Below, piece by piece: positions 26,472-34,349 of a stretch of 64,000 nt of DNA. A program made the position numbers and the translations under genes. Every line of letters begins with the position of its first letter. The first letter of the stretch is position 1. The DNA is taken from contig CP091241.1 of NCBI GenBank assembly GCA_027627685.1, positions 2,171,191-2,235,190 of the forward strand, written 5' to 3'. A model generated the notes under the pieces. The model worked only from the letters and a program-made list of their open reading frames with translations, ran no database searches and was not told the DNA's origin. This DNA comes from Hyphomonadaceae bacterium ML37. Its GTDB lineage: Bacteria > Pseudomonadota > Alphaproteobacteria > Caulobacterales > Maricaulaceae.

Positions 26472-27059
26472 ATGCTGGCCGCTTTGATGCTTTTGATTGC
26501 GGGCGCCGATGCCAGCGCGTGCGAGATCCGTTTCAATCCAGGCGAACGCCACCCCCAGGCGGTCTGCGCCGATGCCGGCGCCCAGGCTGCCCTCGCCTCG
26601 CGCCTGTCGGGTATCAACCTGCCGCGCGATCTGCAGGGCGCGCCGCCTGTCGCGGCGGCGCTGACGCCTGACGAGGCTGGCGGCTGGCGCATCCCGACGC
26701 AGGTTCTCGCCGGTCCGCCGCCTCAGCCAGCCTTTGAGGCTATCGAGCGCGGCTGGCATCCGGCCGCCTGCGCCGTAGCGGGCGATGTCGGATCGGACGG
26801 ACGGGCGTCCAATGTGCGCGTCGCCTGCGCGTTCGGCACGCCACCCGGCGAAATGAGCGAACGGCATGTGCAGCTGGCCAACAGATATTATGATCGCGCC
26901 ATGACCAATTGGCTCCGCGCCCAGGCCCTCCTGCCCGGCGATGACGGCGCGTGCTTCTCCACCCTTCTGGTGATTGTGATCAACGACTTCACCTGGACCG
27001 AAGCGCTTGAAAACGGCTGGGCCGAGGAGCCCGACCCGGCGGCGCTCTGCGCACGCTGA
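26472..27059 (+). CDS. Hypothetical exported protein
   Basis: A 195-residue protein of unknown function with a short signal peptide (MLAALMLLIAGADASA, cleaved before CEIRF; a lipoprotein is possible because Cys follows). GGAGG lies seven bases before the ATG. The middle has a TonB-C-like flavour (WHPAACAVAGDVGSDGRASNVRVAC), which could be a small periplasmic domain related to energy-transducer C-termini; this is tentative. Several cysteines could form disulfides. It stands alone downstream of asd, 79 bases away. Confidence 0.65.
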   Translation: MLAALMLLIAGADASACEIRFNPGERHPQAVCADAGAQAALASRLSGINLPRDLQGAPPVAAALTPDEAGGWRIPTQVLAGPPPQPAFEAIERGWHPAACAVAGDVGSDGRASNVRVACAFGTPPGEMSERHVQLANRYYDRAMTNWLRAQALLPGDDGACFSTLLVIVINDFTWTEALENGWAEEPDPAALCAR

Positions 27060-27085
27060 CGGGGGAGTGAAGGCCTAAATTCCAT

Positions 27086-27200
27086 GCTTTCCCGGCCGAC
27101 CGAAGGGAGTGCCGGGACCCATCCACTGATCATTCCCACCCGCAATGCGGTTGAGACTTCCAGGGATGGATCCCGGATCGGCTGCGCCGTCCGGGAAGGC
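27086..27200. repeat. Large intergenic palindromic repeat
   Basis: An imperfect composite inverted repeat. The left arm (27086-27127) contains TTTCCCGG...GCCGGGACCCATCC, and its reverse complement is matched by GGATGGATCCCGGA...TCCGGGAAGG in the right arm (27163-27200). Each arm is itself a small hairpin around TCCCGG/CCGGGA. The pattern (CCGGGAC-CCAT arms around an AT-richer centre) is like dispersed intergenic repeats of Hyphomonadaceae/Caulobacterales chromosomes. It lies between a plus-strand gene and the 3' end of the truncated rpiA. Confidence 0.6.
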
Positions 27201-27258
27201 AGTTTTGGGCTTGGTTCCCTATCACCTGCCGCGAGCGCTGGACTGGCTGCGCCCCCCC

Positions 27259-27801
27259 CTAAATCTCCAGCACCTGCGCGCCGTCTTCCTCGCCGACGAT
27301 CACCGTGCGGGCCAGGCCAATGAACAGGCCGTGCTCCACCACGCCGGGGATGGCGACGAGGCGCCGCGCGGCGCCTTCGGGGTCGGGCAGTTCGCCGCAG
27401 GCGCAGTCCAGAATGTAGTGGCCGCCATCGGTGACGAAGGGCTCCAGCCCGTCGCCGCGGCGGCGCAGGGCGACATCGCAGCGCGGCGCGCCCGACGCGC
27501 GCAGGGCGTCGAAGACTTTCTTGGCAGTGATGGTGAAGCCGAACGGATCCACCTCCACCGGCAGCGGGAACGCGCCCAGGCTTTCGACCAGCTTGGTCTC
27601 GTCGATCACCACGACCATGCGGTCAGAGGCGTGGGCGATGATCTTTTCGCGTAACAGGCACCCGCCCCCGCCCTTGATCAGGCGGAAGCGACCGTCCACC
27701 TCGTCGGCCCCGTCCACGGTCAGATCGATGCGCACCGCCTGGTCCACCGGGATCAGCGGCACGCCGGCGGCCTTGGCCGCGCGCGCTGTTGTTTTGGACA
27801 A
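27259..27801 (-). pseudogene. rpiA: 5'-truncated ribose-5-phosphate isomerase A
   Basis: About 180 residues matching the C-terminal three quarters of RpiA. SKTTARAAKAAGVPLIPVD continues straight into DLTVDGADEVDG (the two catalytic Asp), LIKGGGGCLLREKI (Lys and Glu) and the end [12 protein letters not shown]. The usual first 50-60 residues, including the GTGSTA phosphate-binding loop, are absent. The only possible start is a TTG at 27801, in the middle of the conserved TSK-T segment, and an in-frame TGA lies four codons further upstream. Homology ends exactly where base composition shifts to the AT-richer segment on the right. The remnant keeps the GC-rich codon use of the chromosome, so it is the resident gene. 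It is very probably inactive, and a divergent intact homologue lies 200 bases away. Confidence 0.85.
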
Positions 27802-28001
27802 TAAGATCCGTCATTTGCTGGCGTAATTTGAACGCACGATCATGCTGAGCGGGTTAGGAGAAGCCCGGCGTCTGACTGGCGACAGCTGCTCACGCGACCC
27901 GTAGAATATGCACCCAGCCATCCGCGCATAAGCCATTACCCCTTGCTCGATAGACGACTCCCGATATTAAGGTTTGCAATAGGATCAATTGGAGCCACGC
28001 C

Positions 28002-28739
28002 ATGCTTGACCGTGACGCGGTCTTTAGTACCGAAGTCCCCCTGACAGAACAAGAAGAGAATTTAACGCGATTCTGGGGGAAGCCGATTTCGAATTATAGC
28101 GCGAAATGCGCTATAGCCGAATTTATTGCCAGCAACCTTTTTAAAGACGAAGTCATTGGAGCCGGCTCGGGCACGACATCATTTCTAACACTCGCAGCAA
28201 TCGCGCAAAAGCAAGCGCGCTCGAAACAGAAAAACATATTCGTGCCAACATCTGATGAGATCACTTTGGCCTGTCGCTTCTTCGGGCTTCACCAAACCTC
28301 TCCACTTTCAATGAGCCCCGATTGGGGGTTTGATGGAGCCGATGAAATTGATCTCGAGGGATCTATGATTAAGGGCCGAGGCGGCGCCCTCGTGCTTGAA
28401 AAAATTATCATGTCTATGTCAAAGAAGACGCTGATCGTCGCTGACTCAAGTAAATTTCAGGAGAGGCTTGGAGCAACGTTTTCCGTTCCCGTCGAAATAA
28501 TTCCAGATTCTTATTCACTAGTCAGAAGCCAACTTGAAAATGAAGGGATTAGTGAGTTCAAATTACGCGGCAATAGCAGGAGCGATGGACCAGCAGTGAC
28601 CCGGTATGGGAACTGGACCATCGATGTCAGATTCGAGGCGCCGACGCGAGAAAGCCTACGCTATCTCAAACAAATCCCAGGGGTAATCGAGGCCGGACTC
28701 TTTTTTGACTATCCAATTGAAATAGTACGAGCGAACTAA
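28002..28739 (+). CDS. Divergent ribose-5-phosphate isomerase A homologue in AT-rich segment
   Basis: A 245-residue RpiA-family protein that would interconvert ribose-5-phosphate and ribulose-5-phosphate or a related sugar phosphate. Motifs in order: VIGAGSGTTSFLTLA at residues 52-66 (phosphate loop), VPTSDEIT at 81-88, GFDGADEID at 109-117 with both catalytic Asp, IKGRGGALVLEKI at 123-135 with Lys and Glu, and IPGVIEAGLFF near the C-terminus. GGAG precedes the ATG. Codon use and base composition are clearly AT-richer than the resident genes, and it is only distantly similar to the truncated rpiA at 27259-27801, with a longer N-terminus. The stop overlaps the convergent membrane-protein gene by three bases. 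It may replace the broken rpiA or act on a special sugar phosphate. Confidence 0.85.
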   Translation: MLDRDAVFSTEVPLTEQEENLTRFWGKPISNYSAKCAIAEFIASNLFKDEVIGAGSGTTSFLTLAAIAQKQARSKQKNIFVPTSDEITLACRFFGLHQTSPLSMSPDWGFDGADEIDLEGSMIKGRGGALVLEKIIMSMSKKTLIVADSSKFQERLGATFSVPVEIIPDSYSLVRSQLENEGISEFKLRGNSRSDGPAVTRYGNWTIDVRFEAPTRESLRYLKQIPGVIEAGLFFDYPIEIVRAN

Positions 28740-29446
28740 AAGGTCTGCCCTTTGTCCTGCCTTGCGATCACAAACGACTGGTCAAAACGATCAATGAACG
28801 AGCGAATTAGTGCGCGGCCAGATTCTGTGTCTGACGTTGCGAAAAGCGGCTCGCCCACCTCGACGAAAGACCAAATAACAGGATTCGGTACATAATTTCC
28901 GAATATAACGCATCGTTCGTCGAAAACGACAAAATAGTCAGATGGGAGGCTAGCGTATCTTTCTACCGATACAAGTTCGAACAGGTGACGCTCCGTCATG
29001 GCTCTCCATTGCGCAATCATATGCTCGATATGATCAGCAAAGCCCACGAGAGATTCGAAACGAGACCATTGATCTGCTCGCGGATTCCACAACAAAATTT
29101 CAATGGACTTTGCTCTCAGACCAGCTCCTTCAAATATAGGTTGCAGCTTTCCAGTCGAAATTGCATAAATTCTTATCTTTTTAAAAACCTTGCCGGATTT
29201 CATTGCAGTGCTTACTGCTTCATTTAGATTTGATACGGCAAATGATCCTTGCTCGTTCCGGCTTCGTCTCAACTCCCAAGAATAGTACAGATTCGAAAGT
29301 GTCGATGCCGCAACCAAAGCCCCCAGCACACCTACGACCTGTATTATGTCAAATTCAATAAAGTTAGAAATTTGCTGAAAGAAAAGCAATATGATTGCTG
29401 TTGCCAAGATCAGCGCCAGCTCCAGTACTCGTAAAGCCTTAAGCAT
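28736..29446 (-). CDS. Two-helix membrane protein with C-terminal domain of unknown function
   Basis: A 236-residue protein. Residues 8-27 and 35-54 are hydrophobic helices, followed by a soluble domain of about 180 residues. That domain runs IRIYAISTGKLQPIF (86-100), SIEILLWNPRAD (114-125), a helical stretch with HIEHMIAQWRAMTERH, then SDYFVVFDERCVIFGNYVPN (159-178). Alternating strands that end in a VFDER/IFGNY pair recall phospholipase-D-like or DUF5919-like domains, but no HKD catalytic motif is present, so the assignment is weak. The ATG directly follows the stop of the methyltransferase gene, so the two were an operon before the IS insertion. AT-rich like its neighbours. No function is assigned; a membrane-anchored sensor or effector is possible. 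Confidence 0.7.
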   Translation of the reverse strand: MLKALRVLELALILATAIILLFFQQISNFIEFDIIQVVGVLGALVAASTLSNLYYSWELRRSRNEQGSFAVSNLNEAVSTAMKSGKVFKKIRIYAISTGKLQPIFEGAGLRAKSIEILLWNPRADQWSRFESLVGFADHIEHMIAQWRAMTERHLFELVSVERYASLPSDYFVVFDERCVIFGNYVPNPVIWSFVEVGEPLFATSDTESGRALIRSFIDRFDQSFVIARQDKGQTF

Positions 29447-29914
29447 CTAATGACCACTCTCACAGATGGTTAGAGTCATTCTCATATCTCTTTCGACCCA
29501 TTGCCTACCATGCATCTTAATCGTTAGATGCTCAAGGCCGCTGTCGAACTCAGCCGCGTCAAGCAGAGCTAGCGTTGAGTAACACTGATCGCGATGAATA
29601 TCGGCATAATCTTGGCCCGACAAGACGCTCGAATCATCAATCAAAATATGACGAACCTTCTTGAATCCTGCGGTTTCGAGCGCATCTTGAAGCAACGGTG
29701 TACTTGGGTGCCGCTCGAGGTCGATCCTGCGAGCACGCGGAAAAAAAGCGTACCAATCTCGATCAATCAGTTGCTGATGCGACGATGTACGTATTGCGAA
29801 AATTCCACCAGGGCGAAGGATAGTCGCTGCCGACTTAGCAAGTTTATACACATCCTCAACCAAATGGATGCTTTCTGAACTCCATATAATGTCTGAGGGC
29901 TCCAAGTCAGCGAG
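29447..29914 (-). pseudogene. SAM methyltransferase, 3' part (interrupted by IS element)
   Basis: C-terminal 154 codons of a class I SAM-dependent methyltransferase. Visible are DLEPSDIIWSSESIHLV (the strand-4 region), then TILRPGGIFAIRTSSHQQL (the strand-5/LRPGG motif), and the ending MRMTLTICESGH. The beginning lies at 31183-31522 on the other side of the IS. Joining the two parts and counting the CGAG target repeat once gives ...DFSDL-ADLEPSD... with no frame break, 804 bases in all. A new open frame enters from the IS end (MVHPLLDG...), but it is not the native start. The membrane-protein gene follows immediately. Confidence 0.88.
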
Positions 29915-29960
29915 TGACCCAGCCCCGTGAATTCCGGCCATTGAATGGTAGAGTCCATCG
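29915..29960 (+). repeat. Left inverted repeat of the IS3-family element
   Basis: Begins TGACCCAGCCCCGTGAATTC. The first 12 bases are identical to the inverted right end, with further blocks TGA, CCGG and GTAGAGTC in common. Confidence 0.9.
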
Positions 29961-29975
29961 AGGAGAGGATGGACC

Positions 29976-30242
29976 ATGCGAAAGAGCCGTTATTCGGAAG
30001 AGCAGATTATCGGCATGCTGCGCGAGCACGACGCCGGTGTGAGCACGAAGGAGGTCTGCCGCAAGTACGGCATCTCCGACGCAACCTTTTACAAATACAA
30101 GGCCAAGTTCGGCGGGATGTCGGTGTCCGATGCCCAGCGTCTGAAGGTGCTGGAGCTGGAGAACAGCCGGCTGAAGCGGCTTCTGGCCGATGCCATGCTG
30201 GACAATGCAGCACTGAAGGACATCGCAGCAAAAAACTTCTGA
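29976..30242 (+). CDS. IS3-family transposase OrfA
   Basis: An 88-residue helix-turn-helix protein: [20 protein letters not shown], then [20 protein letters not shown] is the DNA-binding part, and the [20 protein letters not shown] leucine-rich coiled coil serves for multimerisation. It binds the IS ends. It ends in TGA just after the A AAA AAC slippery heptamer at 30230-30236, where a -1 shift would give the OrfAB fusion transposase. Confidence 0.95.
30230..30236 (+). promoter_or_regulatory. Programmed -1 frameshift site (A AAA AAC)
   Basis: The heptamer A AAA AAC is in the correct phase with orfA (codons AAA AAC) six bases before its TGA. Slipping one base back enters the orfB frame (AAA CTT CTG). 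This is the canonical way IS3 elements make the OrfAB transposase. Confidence 0.85.
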
Positions 30243-30274
30243 CGCCCGACGTTAAGCGCCAGGCCGTGCACCAC

Positions 30275-31153
30275 ATGGTGACCCGGCACGGTCTGAGCGA
30301 ACGTCGGGCCTGCGCCCTTGCAGAGCTGGACCGATCGACCTTCCAGTATCAGAAGCGCTCAAGCGACGATGACGTCTTGCGCACGCGCCTGCGAGATATC
30401 GCCGGCGAGCGTCGCCGGTTCGGCTATCGCCGGCTGGGCATACTGCTCGAGCGCGAGGGCCTTTATGCGAACCACAAGAAGATCTACCGGCTCTACCGAG
30501 AGGAAGGGCTGGCGGTCCGGCGGCGGCGTGGCCGCAAGCGGGCCGTGGGAACCCGGCGCCCGATCCTGTTGCCCGTGGCGGCGAACCATCGCTGGAGCCT
30601 GGACTTCGTCTCTGACGCGCTGTCAGACGGGCGGCGCTTCCGGACGCTATGCGTGGTCGACGACTTTACGCGGGAGGCCTTGGCCGTCGTGGTCGATACC
30701 TCGCTGTCTGGGATGCGCGTGGCCCGTGAGCTTGATCGTCTGATCGAGCAGCGAGGAACGCCGCGCATGATCGTGAGCGACAACGGCACCGAACTGACCA
30801 GTCACGCGCTTCTGCGCTGGCAGAAAGAGAGCGGCGTGGAATGGCACTATATCGCACCTGGAAAGCCTACCCAGAATGCCTTCGTGGAGAGCTTCAACGG
30901 TCGGTTCCGCGATGAGTGCCTGAACGAGCACCTGTTCTCGTCGCTACACGAAGCACGCGGCCTGATCGAGGCGTGGAGGATCGACTACAACACCCAGCGT
31001 CCGCACACCGCGCTTGGTGGGCTTGCGCCCTGTGTCTACGCCGAGCGAACCCGTCACCCCCGGCCCGGCTCGCTTGAGCTACGCGCAAGCTCCGCTCACC
31101 GGGCCTTGACCAACCACATCAACCCAGAAAGAAAGGCGAACAGACTCTACTAA
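30275..31153 (+). CDS. IS3-family transposase OrfB (DDE integrase core)
   Basis: The orfB frame, given from its first plausible internal ATG; the functional protein is probably OrfAB made by frameshifting from 29976. HTH_21-like region [20 protein letters not shown] comes first. The rve integrase core has catalytic Asp in [11 protein letters not shown], Asp in [12 protein letters not shown] and Glu in [14 protein letters not shown], spaced as D-D-35-E. The C-terminus has the [12 protein letters not shown] signature. The frame is open from before the IS start to 31153, with no stops or shifts, indicating an intact transposase. Confidence 0.95.
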
Positions 31154-31182
31154 CTCACGGCCCGGATCAGGGGGCTGGGTCA
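31137..31182 (-). repeat. Right inverted repeat of the IS3-family element
   Basis: Read inward on the minus strand it begins TGACCCAGCCCCCTGATCC, matching the left end. The CGAG at 31183-31186 outside it is the target duplication. Confidence 0.9.
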
Positions 31183-31522
31183 CGAGGTCTGAGAAATCAG
31201 CACGCAACGCCTTTATGGATAACGACTCATCCATGGCTGATTGCGTGAGTTGTTCGCACATGGCTTGGGACGCATCGAGGGCAATTACATGACCGCCTTC
31301 GCCCACCGCACGCGCGAAGGGCCTCGCAAACCGCCCAACGCCAGCGCCAAGATCAACAATGCGCTTGCTTTGTAAGGTCCGGTCAGGTGATGCATCTTCG
31401 AGCGCTGCGACGTATCGCGCGATCTGCTCATTCCTCAAATGCCTTGATCGATAAAATGCATCTACATATCCCGCACGCTCGAAGATGCTAGCGGCCTTTT
31501 GGGTGTTTTCGCCTCTGCTCAT
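31183..31522 (-). pseudogene. SAM methyltransferase, 5' part (interrupted by IS element)
   Basis: N-terminal 113 codons of the methyltransferase completed at 29447-29914. SAM motif I is VDLGAGVGRFARPFA at residues 56-70, followed by VIALDASQAM (acidic ribose-binding residue) and ALRADFSDL just before the break. The native ATG at 31522 overlaps the gabD stop in an ATGA, so the gene was translationally coupled to gabD. Composition is AT-richer than gabD. The intact protein would be 267 residues. After insertion this half runs about 35 codons into the IS before stopping. Confidence 0.88.
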
Positions 31523-32994
31523 CTGTCCACGCCTCCCAACATGACGAATTTCAGCTCGGTGAATTCCTCCACACCCCATTTACCGCCCTCGCGGCCAATG
31601 CCCGATTCCTTCATCCCGCCAAAGGGTGTGGAGGGCGAGCCGACCATGGGCGCGTTGACGCCTACCATGCCGAACTCCAGCGCCTCGCTCATGCGGTGCA
31701 CCCGGCCCACATCATTGGTGTAGAGATACGCGGCCAGCCCGTGGCGCGTGTCATTGGCCAGGCGGATCATCTCCGCCTCGTCAGCGGCGCGGTAGACCGT
31801 GGCCACGGGGCCGAAAATCTCGTTTGACGCCATGTCCAGCCCCTGATCGTCGCCCGCCTCGATCAGGGTCGGCGCGTAGAACGCCCCGCCCATCTTGGCC
31901 GACAAAGACTGGCCGCCGACCAGCACCTTGGCGCCGCGCGTGCGCGCATCCTCCACCAGGGCGGAGACGTGTTCGACGGCCTCTTCATGGATCAACGGGC
32001 CGACATTGGTGCGCTCGTCAAAGCCGGAGCCGACTTTCAGCTTCTCCACCCGGCGCTTGAGCGCCTTGATCAGGGCGTCGGCGATGGCGTCCTGGGCGAT
32101 GATCCGGTTGGCCGACACGCAGGTCTGGCCCGCCGCACGGAACTTGCTGGCCATCACGCCATCGGCGGCGAGCTCCACATCGGCGTCGTCCATCACCAGA
32201 AAGGGCGCATTGCCGCCCAGCTCCAGCGAGACGCGCTTGATGCCGTCAGCGGCCTGACGCATCAACAGCTTGCCGACTTCCGTCGAGCCGGTGAAGCCGA
32301 TCATGCGCACCGCCGGCGCGCCGGTCATGACCGGGCCCAGCACCTCGGCCTTGCCATTGATCACATTGAACACGCCCGCCGGGAAGCCGGCCCGCTTGGC
32401 AAGCTCGGCCAACGCCAACGCCGACAGCGGGGTTTCCGGCGCGGGCTTGACCACCACCGTGCAGCCCGCCGCCAGCGCCGGGGCGCATTTGCGGGTGATC
32501 ATGGCGGAGGGGAAATTCCACGGCGTGATGCAGGCGACCACACCCACCGGCTGGCGCAGCGTCCAGCCGCGCGTGCCCGGCGCCTGGGTCGGCAGGGTCT
32601 CGCCATGCAGGCGCATGGCTTCTTCGGCTGACCAGCTCACGAAACCGGCGCCGTAGACCACCTCGCCGCGCGCTTCCTTATAGGGCTTGCCCATTTCAGC
32701 CGTGATGATGGCGCCCAGATCCGAGGCGTGCTCCACGATCAGCTCATGCCAACGCCGCACGATGCGGGCGCGCTCGAACACCGAGGTCTTCTTCCAAGTC
32801 TGGAAGGCGCGGGCCGCCGCGTCGATCGCCCGGTGCGCGCCGCCGGCGCCCACATCGGCCACCTTGGCCACCACCGAGCGGTCGGCGGGGTTGCGCACCT
32901 CGAAGCTGTCAGAGCTGTCCACCCAGCCGCCATCAATGAAAGAGGCGCTCTTGAGGAGGGTGGGATCGGTGAGGCGGCTTTTCAGATCGGTCAT
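31519..32994 (-). CDS. gabD: NAD(P)-dependent succinate-semialdehyde dehydrogenase
   Basis: A 491-residue aldehyde dehydrogenase of the GabD/SSADH branch. Signatures are ACITPWNFPSAMITRK near residue 155 (cofactor pocket with the catalytic Asn), GFTGSTEVGKLLM near 232, the base Glu in SLELGGNAPFLV near 258, and the nucleophile in AGQTCVSANR near 292. SSADH motif GMKESGIGREGG is near the C-terminus. ATG 32994 matches the family start (MTDLKSRLTD). It sits two bases after the glmU stop and overlaps the next gene's ATG by four bases, so it is in the middle of a coupled operon. Oxidises succinate semialdehyde to succinate; a close glutarate-semialdehyde role is possible. Confidence 0.9.
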   Translation of the reverse strand: MTDLKSRLTDPTLLKSASFIDGGWVDSSDSFEVRNPADRSVVAKVADVGAGGAHRAIDAAARAFQTWKKTSVFERARIVRRWHELIVEHASDLGAIITAEMGKPYKEARGEVVYGAGFVSWSAEEAMRLHGETLPTQAPGTRGWTLRQPVGVVACITPWNFPSAMITRKCAPALAAGCTVVVKPAPETPLSALALAELAKRAGFPAGVFNVINGKAEVLGPVMTGAPAVRMIGFTGSTEVGKLLMRQAADGIKRVSLELGGNAPFLVMDDADVELAADGVMASKFRAAGQTCVSANRIIAQDAIADALIKALKRRVEKLKVGSGFDERTNVGPLIHEEAVEHVSALVEDARTRGAKVLVGGQSLSAKMGGAFYAPTLIEAGDDQGLDMASNEIFGPVATVYRAADEAEMIRLANDTRHGLAAYLYTNDVGRVHRMSEALEFGMVGVNAPMVGSPSTPFGGMKESGIGREGGKWGVEEFTELKFVMLGGVDR

Positions 32995-32996
32995 GC

Positions 32997-34349
32997 TCAG
33001 TCCTTGCTTTTGGTCTTTTTCGCGCTCATGGCTGCGCGGAATCTGGCGGCCCATCCGGGCTTGGTCTCCTGACGCGCCCGGGCGAGGCCCAGCCCGTCGG
33101 CCGGCACGTCGCCGGTGATCACCGAGCCTGACCCGGTCATCGCCCCGGCCCCGATCTCCACCGGCGCCACAAGCGAGGAGTTCGACCCGATGAAGGCGCC
33201 CTCCCCGATCACCGTGCGGTGCTTGAAGAACCCGTCATAATTGCAGGTGATCGTCCCGGCGCCGATATTGGCCTTCGCGCCCACATCGCTATCTCCGATA
33301 TAGGACAGGTGATTGGCTTTTGCGCCCTCCCCCAGGCGGGATTTTTTCACCTCGACAAAATTGCCCACTTTCGCCCCCGCCTCCAGCACCGCGCCGGGGC
33401 GCAGCCGGGCGTAAGGTCCGACCTCGCAGTCCGGGCCGACATAAGCGCCTTCAAGATGGCTGAATGCCCGGATCACCGCGCCGCCCGCCACCGAAACGCC
33501 CGGGCCGAACACCACATGGGGCTCGATCACCACGTCGGCTTCAATTTGCGTGTCATGGCTGAAGAAGACGGTTTCGGGCGCGGTCAGCGTCACCCCGGCG
33601 GTCATCGCCTCTGCGCGGCGGCGCGTCTGGAAGGCGGCCTCGGCGGCGGCCAGATCGGCCCGGTCATTGACGCCCAGCACCTCGCGCTCATCGGCCCGCA
33701 CGACGCGCGCGTCCAGCCCGTCCGCGCGCGCCATGGCGACAATGTCGGTCAGATAGTATTCGCCCTTGGCGTTGTCGTTTTTCAGCGCCGCCAGCCAGCC
33801 CCAGAGGTGCTCCGCCCGGCAGGCGATCACACCCGAATTGCACAGGCGCACCGCGCGCTGCTGCTCGCTCGCGTCCTTGGCCTCCACGATCGCTTCCAGC
33901 ACGCCGGGCGCCGATTCGATCAGGCGGCCATATCCGCCCGGCGCGTCCGGCTCGAAGCCCAGCACCGCCACCGCCGCCTCATCCAGCGCCGCGAACACCG
34001 CCTCGACGGTTTCCGGCCGGATCAGCGGCGTGTCGGCGTAAAGCACGATCACATCGCCCTCAAACCCCGCGAGCGCGGCTTGCGCTTGGCGCACCGCATG
34101 CCCGGTGCCCGAAGGCGGGTCTTGCAGCACGGTCACGGCGCCGGCGGCTGCGGCCCGGTCACGCACGGCCGGGCTGTGGGCGCCCCAGACGGTCACGATC
34201 CGCTCGGCTCCGGCGGCGCGCGCCAGATCCAGGCTCCAGTCCAGCATGGCGCGTCCGGCGACCGCGTGCAGCGGTTTGGCCAGAGCCGATTTCATGCGGG
34301 TGCCCTGTCCGGCGGCGAGTATCACGGCGGCGCGCGCTCGGTGTGTCAT
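32997..34349 (-). CDS. glmU: Bifunctional UDP-N-acetylglucosamine pyrophosphorylase / glucosamine-1-phosphate acetyltransferase
   Basis: A 450-residue GlmU making UDP-GlcNAc for peptidoglycan and LPS. The N-terminal uridyltransferase shows ILAAGQGTRMKSALAKPLH and the DTPLIRPETV metal region. The C-terminal left-handed beta-helix acetyltransferase (about residue 245 on) shows NFVEVKKSRLGEGAKANH, SYIGDSDVGAKANIGAGT and NYDGFFKHRT. Start at ATG 34349, which follows a GGAG site; longer frames are unsupported. First gene of the glmU-gabD unit; its promoter lies in the 215-base gap opposite gph. Confidence 0.95.
   Translation of the reverse strand: MTHRARAAVILAAGQGTRMKSALAKPLHAVAGRAMLDWSLDLARAAGAERIVTVWGAHSPAVRDRAAAAGAVTVLQDPPSGTGHAVRQAQAALAGFEGDVIVLYADTPLIRPETVEAVFAALDEAAVAVLGFEPDAPGGYGRLIESAPGVLEAIVEAKDASEQQRAVRLCNSGVIACRAEHLWGWLAALKNDNAKGEYYLTDIVAMARADGLDARVVRADEREVLGVNDRADLAAAEAAFQTRRRAEAMTAGVTLTAPETVFFSHDTQIEADVVIEPHVVFGPGVSVAGGAVIRAFSHLEGAYVGPDCEVGPYARLRPGAVLEAGAKVGNFVEVKKSRLGEGAKANHLSYIGDSDVGAKANIGAGTITCNYDGFFKHRTVIGEGAFIGSNSSLVAPVEIGAGAMTGSGSVITGDVPADGLGLARARQETKPGWAARFRAAMSAKKTKSKD

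What the first reader, a model, noticed from the sequence alone, without database searches (positions are those of the whole stretch)
27259..28739. Resident rpiA broken at the edge of an AT-rich segment that carries a second, divergent RpiA in reverse
Seen: the resident RpiA starts in the middle of a conserved motif (SKTTARAAKAAG), has an in-frame stop four codons upstream, and lacks the GTGST loop. Two hundred bases away, in opposite orientation and with AT-richer codon use, lies a complete 245-residue RpiA homologue with all catalytic residues. Known: rpiA is a near-essential pentose-phosphate gene. Inferred: a mobile or recombining segment replaced the 5' end of rpiA and brought its own isomerase, so the cell survives on the foreign one, or the foreign one has a special substrate and a third rpiA exists elsewhere. 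Cargo that replaces the function of the gene it destroys, rather than regenerating the same gene, is unusual.
Basis: partly seen in the sequence, partly recalled or inferred. Interest (0 to 1): 0.75.

Follow-up and report, generated by a model that had tools for sequence, protein, structure and literature searches.

The report
Foreign sugar isomerase replaced resident copy
In one bacterium the normal gene for a core sugar-phosphate enzyme has lost its beginning to a small piece of foreign DNA, and that same piece carries a distant but complete version of the enzyme that now appears to be the cell's only copy.

Summary
All 14 same-genus genomes examined have an intact rpiA directly after gabD. 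Here about 170 bp of rpiA (codon 3 to about 58, with the phosphate loop) is replaced by a 3.7-kb AT-rich insert: a methyltransferase gene starting on rpiA's own ATGAGC, an orphan hydrophobic-start protein gene and, in reverse, a complete divergent rpiA (28002-28739). The host's IS3 element later split the methyltransferase. The single-contig genome shows no third RpiA and no RpiB above cutoff, so the foreign gene is probably the only ribose-5-phosphate isomerase. Its model has an RpiA fold (pLDDT 90), it keeps the aligned catalytic residues, and it groups with a distinct RpiA subfamily from scattered Bacillota, Bacteroidota and an actinobacterium; in 5 of 11 searched genomes of that subfamily it is the sole isomerase found. 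Low GC and an undecayed remnant point to a recent event. No integrase, long flanking repeats or related cassette was found, so mobility is not shown. Best reading: in-situ xenologous gene displacement caught with the broken resident gene still in place, a clean example of a known process. Enzyme function is untested.

The parts
31519..33054 (-). gabD-like aldehyde dehydrogenase, intact; its stop codon overlaps the next start (ATGA)
31517..31522 (-). left junction: ATGAGC, shared by the rpiA start of the three nearest relatives and the start of the methyltransferase gene
31183..31522 (-). 5' part of the inserted methyltransferase gene (class I SAM-dependent), using rpiA's start codon
29915..31182 (+). 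IS3-family element inside the methyltransferase gene; 4-bp duplication CGAG at 29911-29914 and 31183-31186
29447..29914 (-). 3' part of the methyltransferase gene
28736..29446 (-). orphan 236-aa protein with a hydrophobic N-terminus (by eye); its ATG directly follows the methyltransferase stop (TAGATG)
   Evidence: no relatives
28002..28739 (+). rpiA2: complete foreign ribose-5-phosphate isomerase A, 245 aa; its stop overlaps the stop of the 236-aa gene
27802..28001 (.). 200-bp spacer (GC 0.54) with rpiA2's likely ribosome-binding site (TGGAG, by eye) and presumably its promoter
   Evidence: one 9-of-12 promoter-like match at 27879-27907, but matches in the scanned region are no more than shuffles give
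27789..27801 (-). right junction: homology to relatives' rpiA resumes here (about codon 58-60)
27259..27801 (-). remnant of resident rpiA, without the first roughly 58 codons

Best explanation
A horizontally acquired cassette of about 2.45 kb (methyltransferase, 236-aa protein and, convergent to them, rpiA2) was joined into the gabD-rpiA boundary. The left joint lies in ATGAGC, present both at rpiA's start and at the methyltransferase start; the right joint lies near rpiA codon 58. This removed about 170 bp and inactivated resident rpiA. The cell survived because the cassette brought its own RpiA, of a different subfamily, read from its own leader on the other strand; it is now probably the only ribose-5-phosphate isomerase. 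The methyltransferase took over rpiA's start codon and its overlap with gabD, and was later split by an IS3 element resident in this genome. Shown: the anatomy, the empty site in relatives, no other isomerase found, predicted fold and active-site conservation, signs of recency. Inferred: single-step illegitimate (microhomology) joining, expression of rpiA2, and that rpiA2 carries the pentose-phosphate function.
For: Empty site: 14 of 14 same-genus genomes have gabD directly followed by complete rpiA; breakpoints at 31517 and 27789-27794 against the three nearest. Sole isomerase: 2 RpiA matches only, the remnant and rpiA2; RpiB best E 0.51, under cutoff; the genome is one contig, listed 100% complete. 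Each of the 60 relatives searched has exactly one RpiA match. Competence: AlphaFold2 model pLDDT 89.9, with RpiA chains holding ranks 1-36 in PDB (best 3ixq, TM 0.82/0.89); residues aligned to E. coli K7, D81, D84, K94, E103, K121 present. Subfamily: 13-row clade, SH-aLRT 99 (quick tree), with W108 invariant in 13 of 13; 5 of 11 searched genomes with it have one RpiA and no RpiB match. Foreignness: GC3 0.45-0.55; the best match in 136 other family genomes has E 2.5e-24, and none of 384 other class or 298 other phylum genomes (overlapping sets) has one at E<=1e-26. Recency: remnant-specific codon changes 4 synonymous, 0 nonsynonymous. IS3 is later: 5 full copies, this one included, and 1 partial at 99-100% in the genome, with a 4-bp duplication here.
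Against: No enzyme assay or expression data. Promoter-like matches in 27600-29000 are no more than shuffles give (2 found, mean 1.3; one lies in the spacer, one inside rpiA2). rpiA2 scores 140.3 bits against the 192 cutoff of NF001924 and sits on a very long branch (2.37), so changed specificity is possible; its plain identity to its subfamily (36-42%) is only a little above that to other RpiA (28-37%). The remnant shows no relaxed selection, which fits recency but would also fit a retained role. One genome only; reads were not available. The donor was not found.
Confidence: 0.8

Rival explanations
1. The cassette is a genuinely mobile element that captures a near-essential gene site and holds its place by supplying the replacement enzyme (metabolic addiction).
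For: Compact gene arrangement with overlapping or abutting ends; replacement of a conserved single-copy gene in what looks like one event; foreign composition.
Against: No integrase or transposase other than the later IS3 among the insert's proteins; no direct repeat of 14 bp or more spanning the two junctions, and the longest exact direct match between 35- and 40-bp stretches around them is 6 bp; no relative of the 236-aa protein in 288 other class or 136 other family genomes, plasmids or phages; only generic RpiA in phages (15 of 15 records seen), plasmids (40 of 87 records seen) and viral contigs; 0 of 12 subfamily loci encode a relative of the methyltransferase pieces or the 236-aa protein at E<=1e-3.
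Confidence: 0.08
2. rpiA2 is a specialised isomerase (another sugar phosphate, or resistance to an inhibitor made with the methyltransferase), and ribose-5-phosphate is made some other way.
For: Long branch; below the NF001924 cutoff; phosphate loop GSGTT, against GTGST in E. coli and GSGST in the resident type.
Against: No other RpiA found and no RpiB above cutoff in the genome; catalytic residues kept; same-subfamily proteins are the only isomerase found in 5 of 11 searched genomes.
Confidence: 0.07
3. The truncated rpiA is a misassembly or sequencing artefact.
For: Only one genome carries it; no reads could be checked.
Against: 40-bp stretches over each junction occur once in the window and the flanking remnant and rpiA2 are the only RpiA matches in the genome; a genome-wide repeat search of the junctions was not made. 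The multi-copy IS3 is internal to the insert, and the insert carries this genome's own IS with a target duplication. Single-contig genome with 0.65% contamination.
Confidence: 0.05

Closest known systems
Xenologous gene displacement in situ (defined in PMC1274311, passages read; Omelchenko et al. 2003, seen only in its reference list, paper not held)
   Same: A foreign homologue takes over at the same chromosomal place and the ancestral orthologue is lost.
   Different: Here the ancestral gene is still present as a truncated remnant, the new gene is in opposite orientation with its own leader, and passenger genes came along.
RpiA family (PF06026 / TIGR00021)
   Same: Predicted fold, profile scores and catalytic residues.
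   Different: At most 41% identity in any aligned stretch to the resident-type RpiA of 136 family genomes; about 28 residues longer at the N-terminus than E. coli RpiA; Trp two residues before the [FV]DGADE motif.
Trp-type RpiA subfamily of Halobacillus, Pontibacillus, Bacteroides, Algoriphagus, Clostridia MAGs and Conexibacter (name mine)
   Same: W108 in 13 of 13, IKGRGGA-like motif in most; 13-row clade with SH-aLRT 99.
   Different: 36-42% identity to its members and a long branch; their loci hold none of our insert's other genes.
Phage phi3T thyP3 (PMC8270828, passages read)
   Same: A mobile element supplies a metabolic enzyme that can cover a host deficiency.
   Different: thyP3 is described there as host conversion, not as replacing a gene that the element itself destroys.

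Membership tests
RpiA enzyme family | Profile score above curated cutoff | tested here: met
   PF06026 146.8 bits (cutoff 26); TIGR00021 154.7 (cutoff 126.4); but NF001924 140.3, below its 192 cutoff
RpiA enzyme family | RpiA fold and active-site residues | tested here: met
   predicted model and alignment; residue roles recalled
RpiA enzyme family | Ribose-5-phosphate isomerase activity | not testable with these tools
   no assay possible
Trp-type RpiA subfamily | Monophyly apart from other RpiA and invariant W before the DGADE motif | tested here: met
Xenologous gene displacement in situ | Resident orthologue lost or inactivated | tested here: met
   truncated, phosphate loop gone; loss of activity itself not assayed
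Xenologous gene displacement in situ | Foreign homologue at the same locus and no other copy | tested here: met
Xenologous gene displacement in situ | Foreign gene performs the lost function | not testable with these tools
   supported indirectly
Integrative mobile element | Own integrase or transposase | tested here: not met
   only the later IS3, itself multi-copy in the genome
Integrative mobile element | Flanking direct repeats or attachment sites | tested here: not met
   none of 14 bp or more across the two junctions; longest exact match around the joints 6 bp
Anti-phage defence system | Profile matches of the cassette genes | tested here: not met
   only partial matches of the 113-aa methyltransferase piece (mad2 E 8.8e-08, MTase_II E 0.0017), read as the common methyltransferase fold

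The most novel reading that the evidence does not exclude
The methyltransferase, 236-aa protein and rpiA2 form a small self-retaining cassette that inserts at the start of a near-essential gene, destroys it and supplies a distant substitute, so that the host can no longer lose the cassette: essential-gene substitution as an addiction strategy.
Probability: 0.08. Interest if true: 0.75.

Novelty: new member of a known kind. Interest (0 to 1): 0.42.

Why it matters
Replacement of core metabolic genes by distant homologues is usually inferred from trees long after the event (recalled). Here the empty site, the breakpoints, the broken resident gene, the passengers and a later IS hit are all still readable, in a genus with many intact relatives. 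It makes a testable case of how a central metabolic gene can be swapped without an intermediate lacking the enzyme, and it points to a Trp-type RpiA subfamily that seems to serve as sole isomerase elsewhere.

Tried and rejected
A third isomerase in the genome: none found.

Phage or plasmid source of rpiA2: generic RpiA only (40 of 87 plasmid records seen). A W-x-F-DGADE pattern scan of viral contigs gave 43 stretches, 0 of 43 related to any of 11 window proteins at E<=0.01; 33 of 43 belong to one unrelated phage protein family.

Function of the 236-aa protein: no Pfam match even at E<=10, no NCBIfam, PADLOC or PHROGs match, single-sequence fold pLDDT 40.6, not used further. Methyltransferase: relatives of the C-terminal piece in 4 of 384 other class genomes, 26-31% identity, none with a relative of rpiA2 or the 236-aa protein in the fetched stretch; one weak plasmid match of the N-terminal piece, none of the C-terminal piece. 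No Rfam match in 27000-32000.

Literature: in the listings seen (open-access library only, lists capped) no title described an rpiA replaced this way; this is not proof that none exists.

Rows dropped: L040 and L041 (repeats of L007 and L025) from the tree, 128 to 126 rows; the first 12 codons after the junction from the codon comparison; L100 was not held, so 11 of 12 genomes were searched. A first motif script returned nothing because of a wrong pattern and was repeated corrected. The careful tree search did not finish; the quick tree is reported. In the script my mdh frame was wrong and its value is not used.

Full report
The window lies in a single-contig genome of 3,038,461 bases. Around the finding the order is glmU (-), gabD (-), insert, remnant of rpiA (-). 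The remnant, 27259-27801 (-), matches PF06026 over 174 residues but has no N-terminus; the reading frame is closed by TGA four codons upstream of the TTG.

Comparison with relatives fixes what happened. In 14 of 14 same-genus genomes gabD is followed directly by a complete rpiA (12 loci, G004 and G005, completeness); in the three nearest the gabD stop overlaps the rpiA start (ATGA). Of 12 relative loci aligned, the five nearest match the window up to 31517, that is through gabD and the bases of ATGAGC, and again from 27784-27794; the other seven, more diverged, end and resume within about 25 bases of these points. The difference is about 170 bp of rpiA lost (codon 3 to about 58) and 3.7 kb gained, of which 1.27 kb is an IS3 element.

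The insert is compact. A class I methyltransferase gene starts on the ATGAGC that is rpiA's start in the three nearest relatives, so it may sit on rpiA's old coupled start. Its stop abuts the ATG of a 236-aa protein (TAGATG), whose own stop overlaps the stop of rpiA2. The methyltransferase is split by IS3 at 29915-31182 with CGAG on both sides; the genome holds five full copies, this one included, and one partial at 99-100% identity, so that hit probably came from the host's own IS after the insert arrived. Third codon positions are 0.45-0.55 GC in the insert genes (IS excluded) and 0.83-0.89 in the rpiA remnant, gabD, glmU and asd. Remnant-specific changes against three agreeing relatives are 4 synonymous and 0 nonsynonymous: there has been little time for decay, or, less likely, the fragment is still constrained.

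Is rpiA2 the cell's isomerase? The genome has two RpiA matches, rpiA2 and the remnant, and no RpiB above cutoff (best E 0.51). rpiA2 aligns to E. coli RpiA with K7, D81, D84, K94, E103 and K121 kept and the loop GSGTT where E. coli has GTGST (roles recalled). A model from 13 sequences has pLDDT 89.9 and matches RpiA structures best (3ixq, TM 0.82 and 0.89). The remnant lacks the loop and the first lysine.

Where is it from? Among 137 family genomes, this one included, nothing beyond the resident type appears (next best E 2.5e-24). In class and phylum samples of 385 and 299 genomes, which overlap and include this one, only this genome passes E 1e-26. The next hit, L106, has E 4e-34, so the line is drawn by the tree, not by a gap in score: these 12 and rpiA2 form a clade with SH-aLRT 99 in a quick tree of 126 rows, and share a Trp two residues before [FV]DGADE, invariant in 13 of 13. 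rpiA2 has an end branch of 2.37, so its exact place is unsure. Of 11 such genomes that could be searched, 10 have one RpiA (one has two) and 5 have no RpiB match; four of the five are MAGs, which may be incomplete, and one is a chromosome titled complete. So proteins of this subfamily probably serve as sole isomerase. 0 of the 12 loci encode a relative of the methyltransferase pieces or the 236-aa protein at E<=1e-3.

Mechanism. No integrase was found in the insert, no direct repeat of 14 bp or more spans the joints (longest exact match around them 6 bp), and no relative of the 236-aa protein turned up in 288 other class genomes, 136 other family genomes, plasmids or phages, nor in viral contigs by a search limited to near-identical peptides. 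The simplest reading is illegitimate recombination with short shared sequence (ATGAGC) at one side. Because rpiA2 came in on the same piece, no isomerase-free intermediate is needed. This is inference; a two-step path (insertion, then deletion) is equally compatible.

Known frame. [quoted passage not shown] Our case fits, with the remnant still in place.

Noticed in passing
31519-34349 and loci L004-L033: gabD itself may be an earlier arrival between glmU and rpiA: of 30 relative loci, 14 (12 same genus, 2 of genus g7) have gabD next to rpiA and 16 have glmU directly next to rpiA. The start of rpiA may be a repeatedly used insertion point; the direction of the gabD change is inferred.
   Followed up: partly
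27821-27837 and 28552-28568: The spacer holds a 16-of-17 inverted copy of a stretch inside rpiA2; 0 of 200 single-base shuffles of the spacer reach this. Possibly a template-switch trace, possibly chance.
   Followed up: partly
29915-31182: IS3-family element with five full copies (this one included) and one partial copy at 99-100% identity in the genome; flanking 4-bp duplications visible at two of the four copies whose both ends were read. Probably recently active.
   Followed up: partly
28736-29446: Orphan 236-aa protein with a hydrophobic N-terminus and no match in any library or genome set tried.
   Followed up: partly
L045-L087 (viral contigs): A phage protein family (33 of 43 pattern hits) carries a WxFDGADE motif that mimics the RpiA signature but shows no tblastn relation to it.
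   Followed up: no
G807 (genome of L096, Pontibacillus): Has two RpiA matches plus an RpiB, possibly both isomerase types side by side.
   Followed up: no
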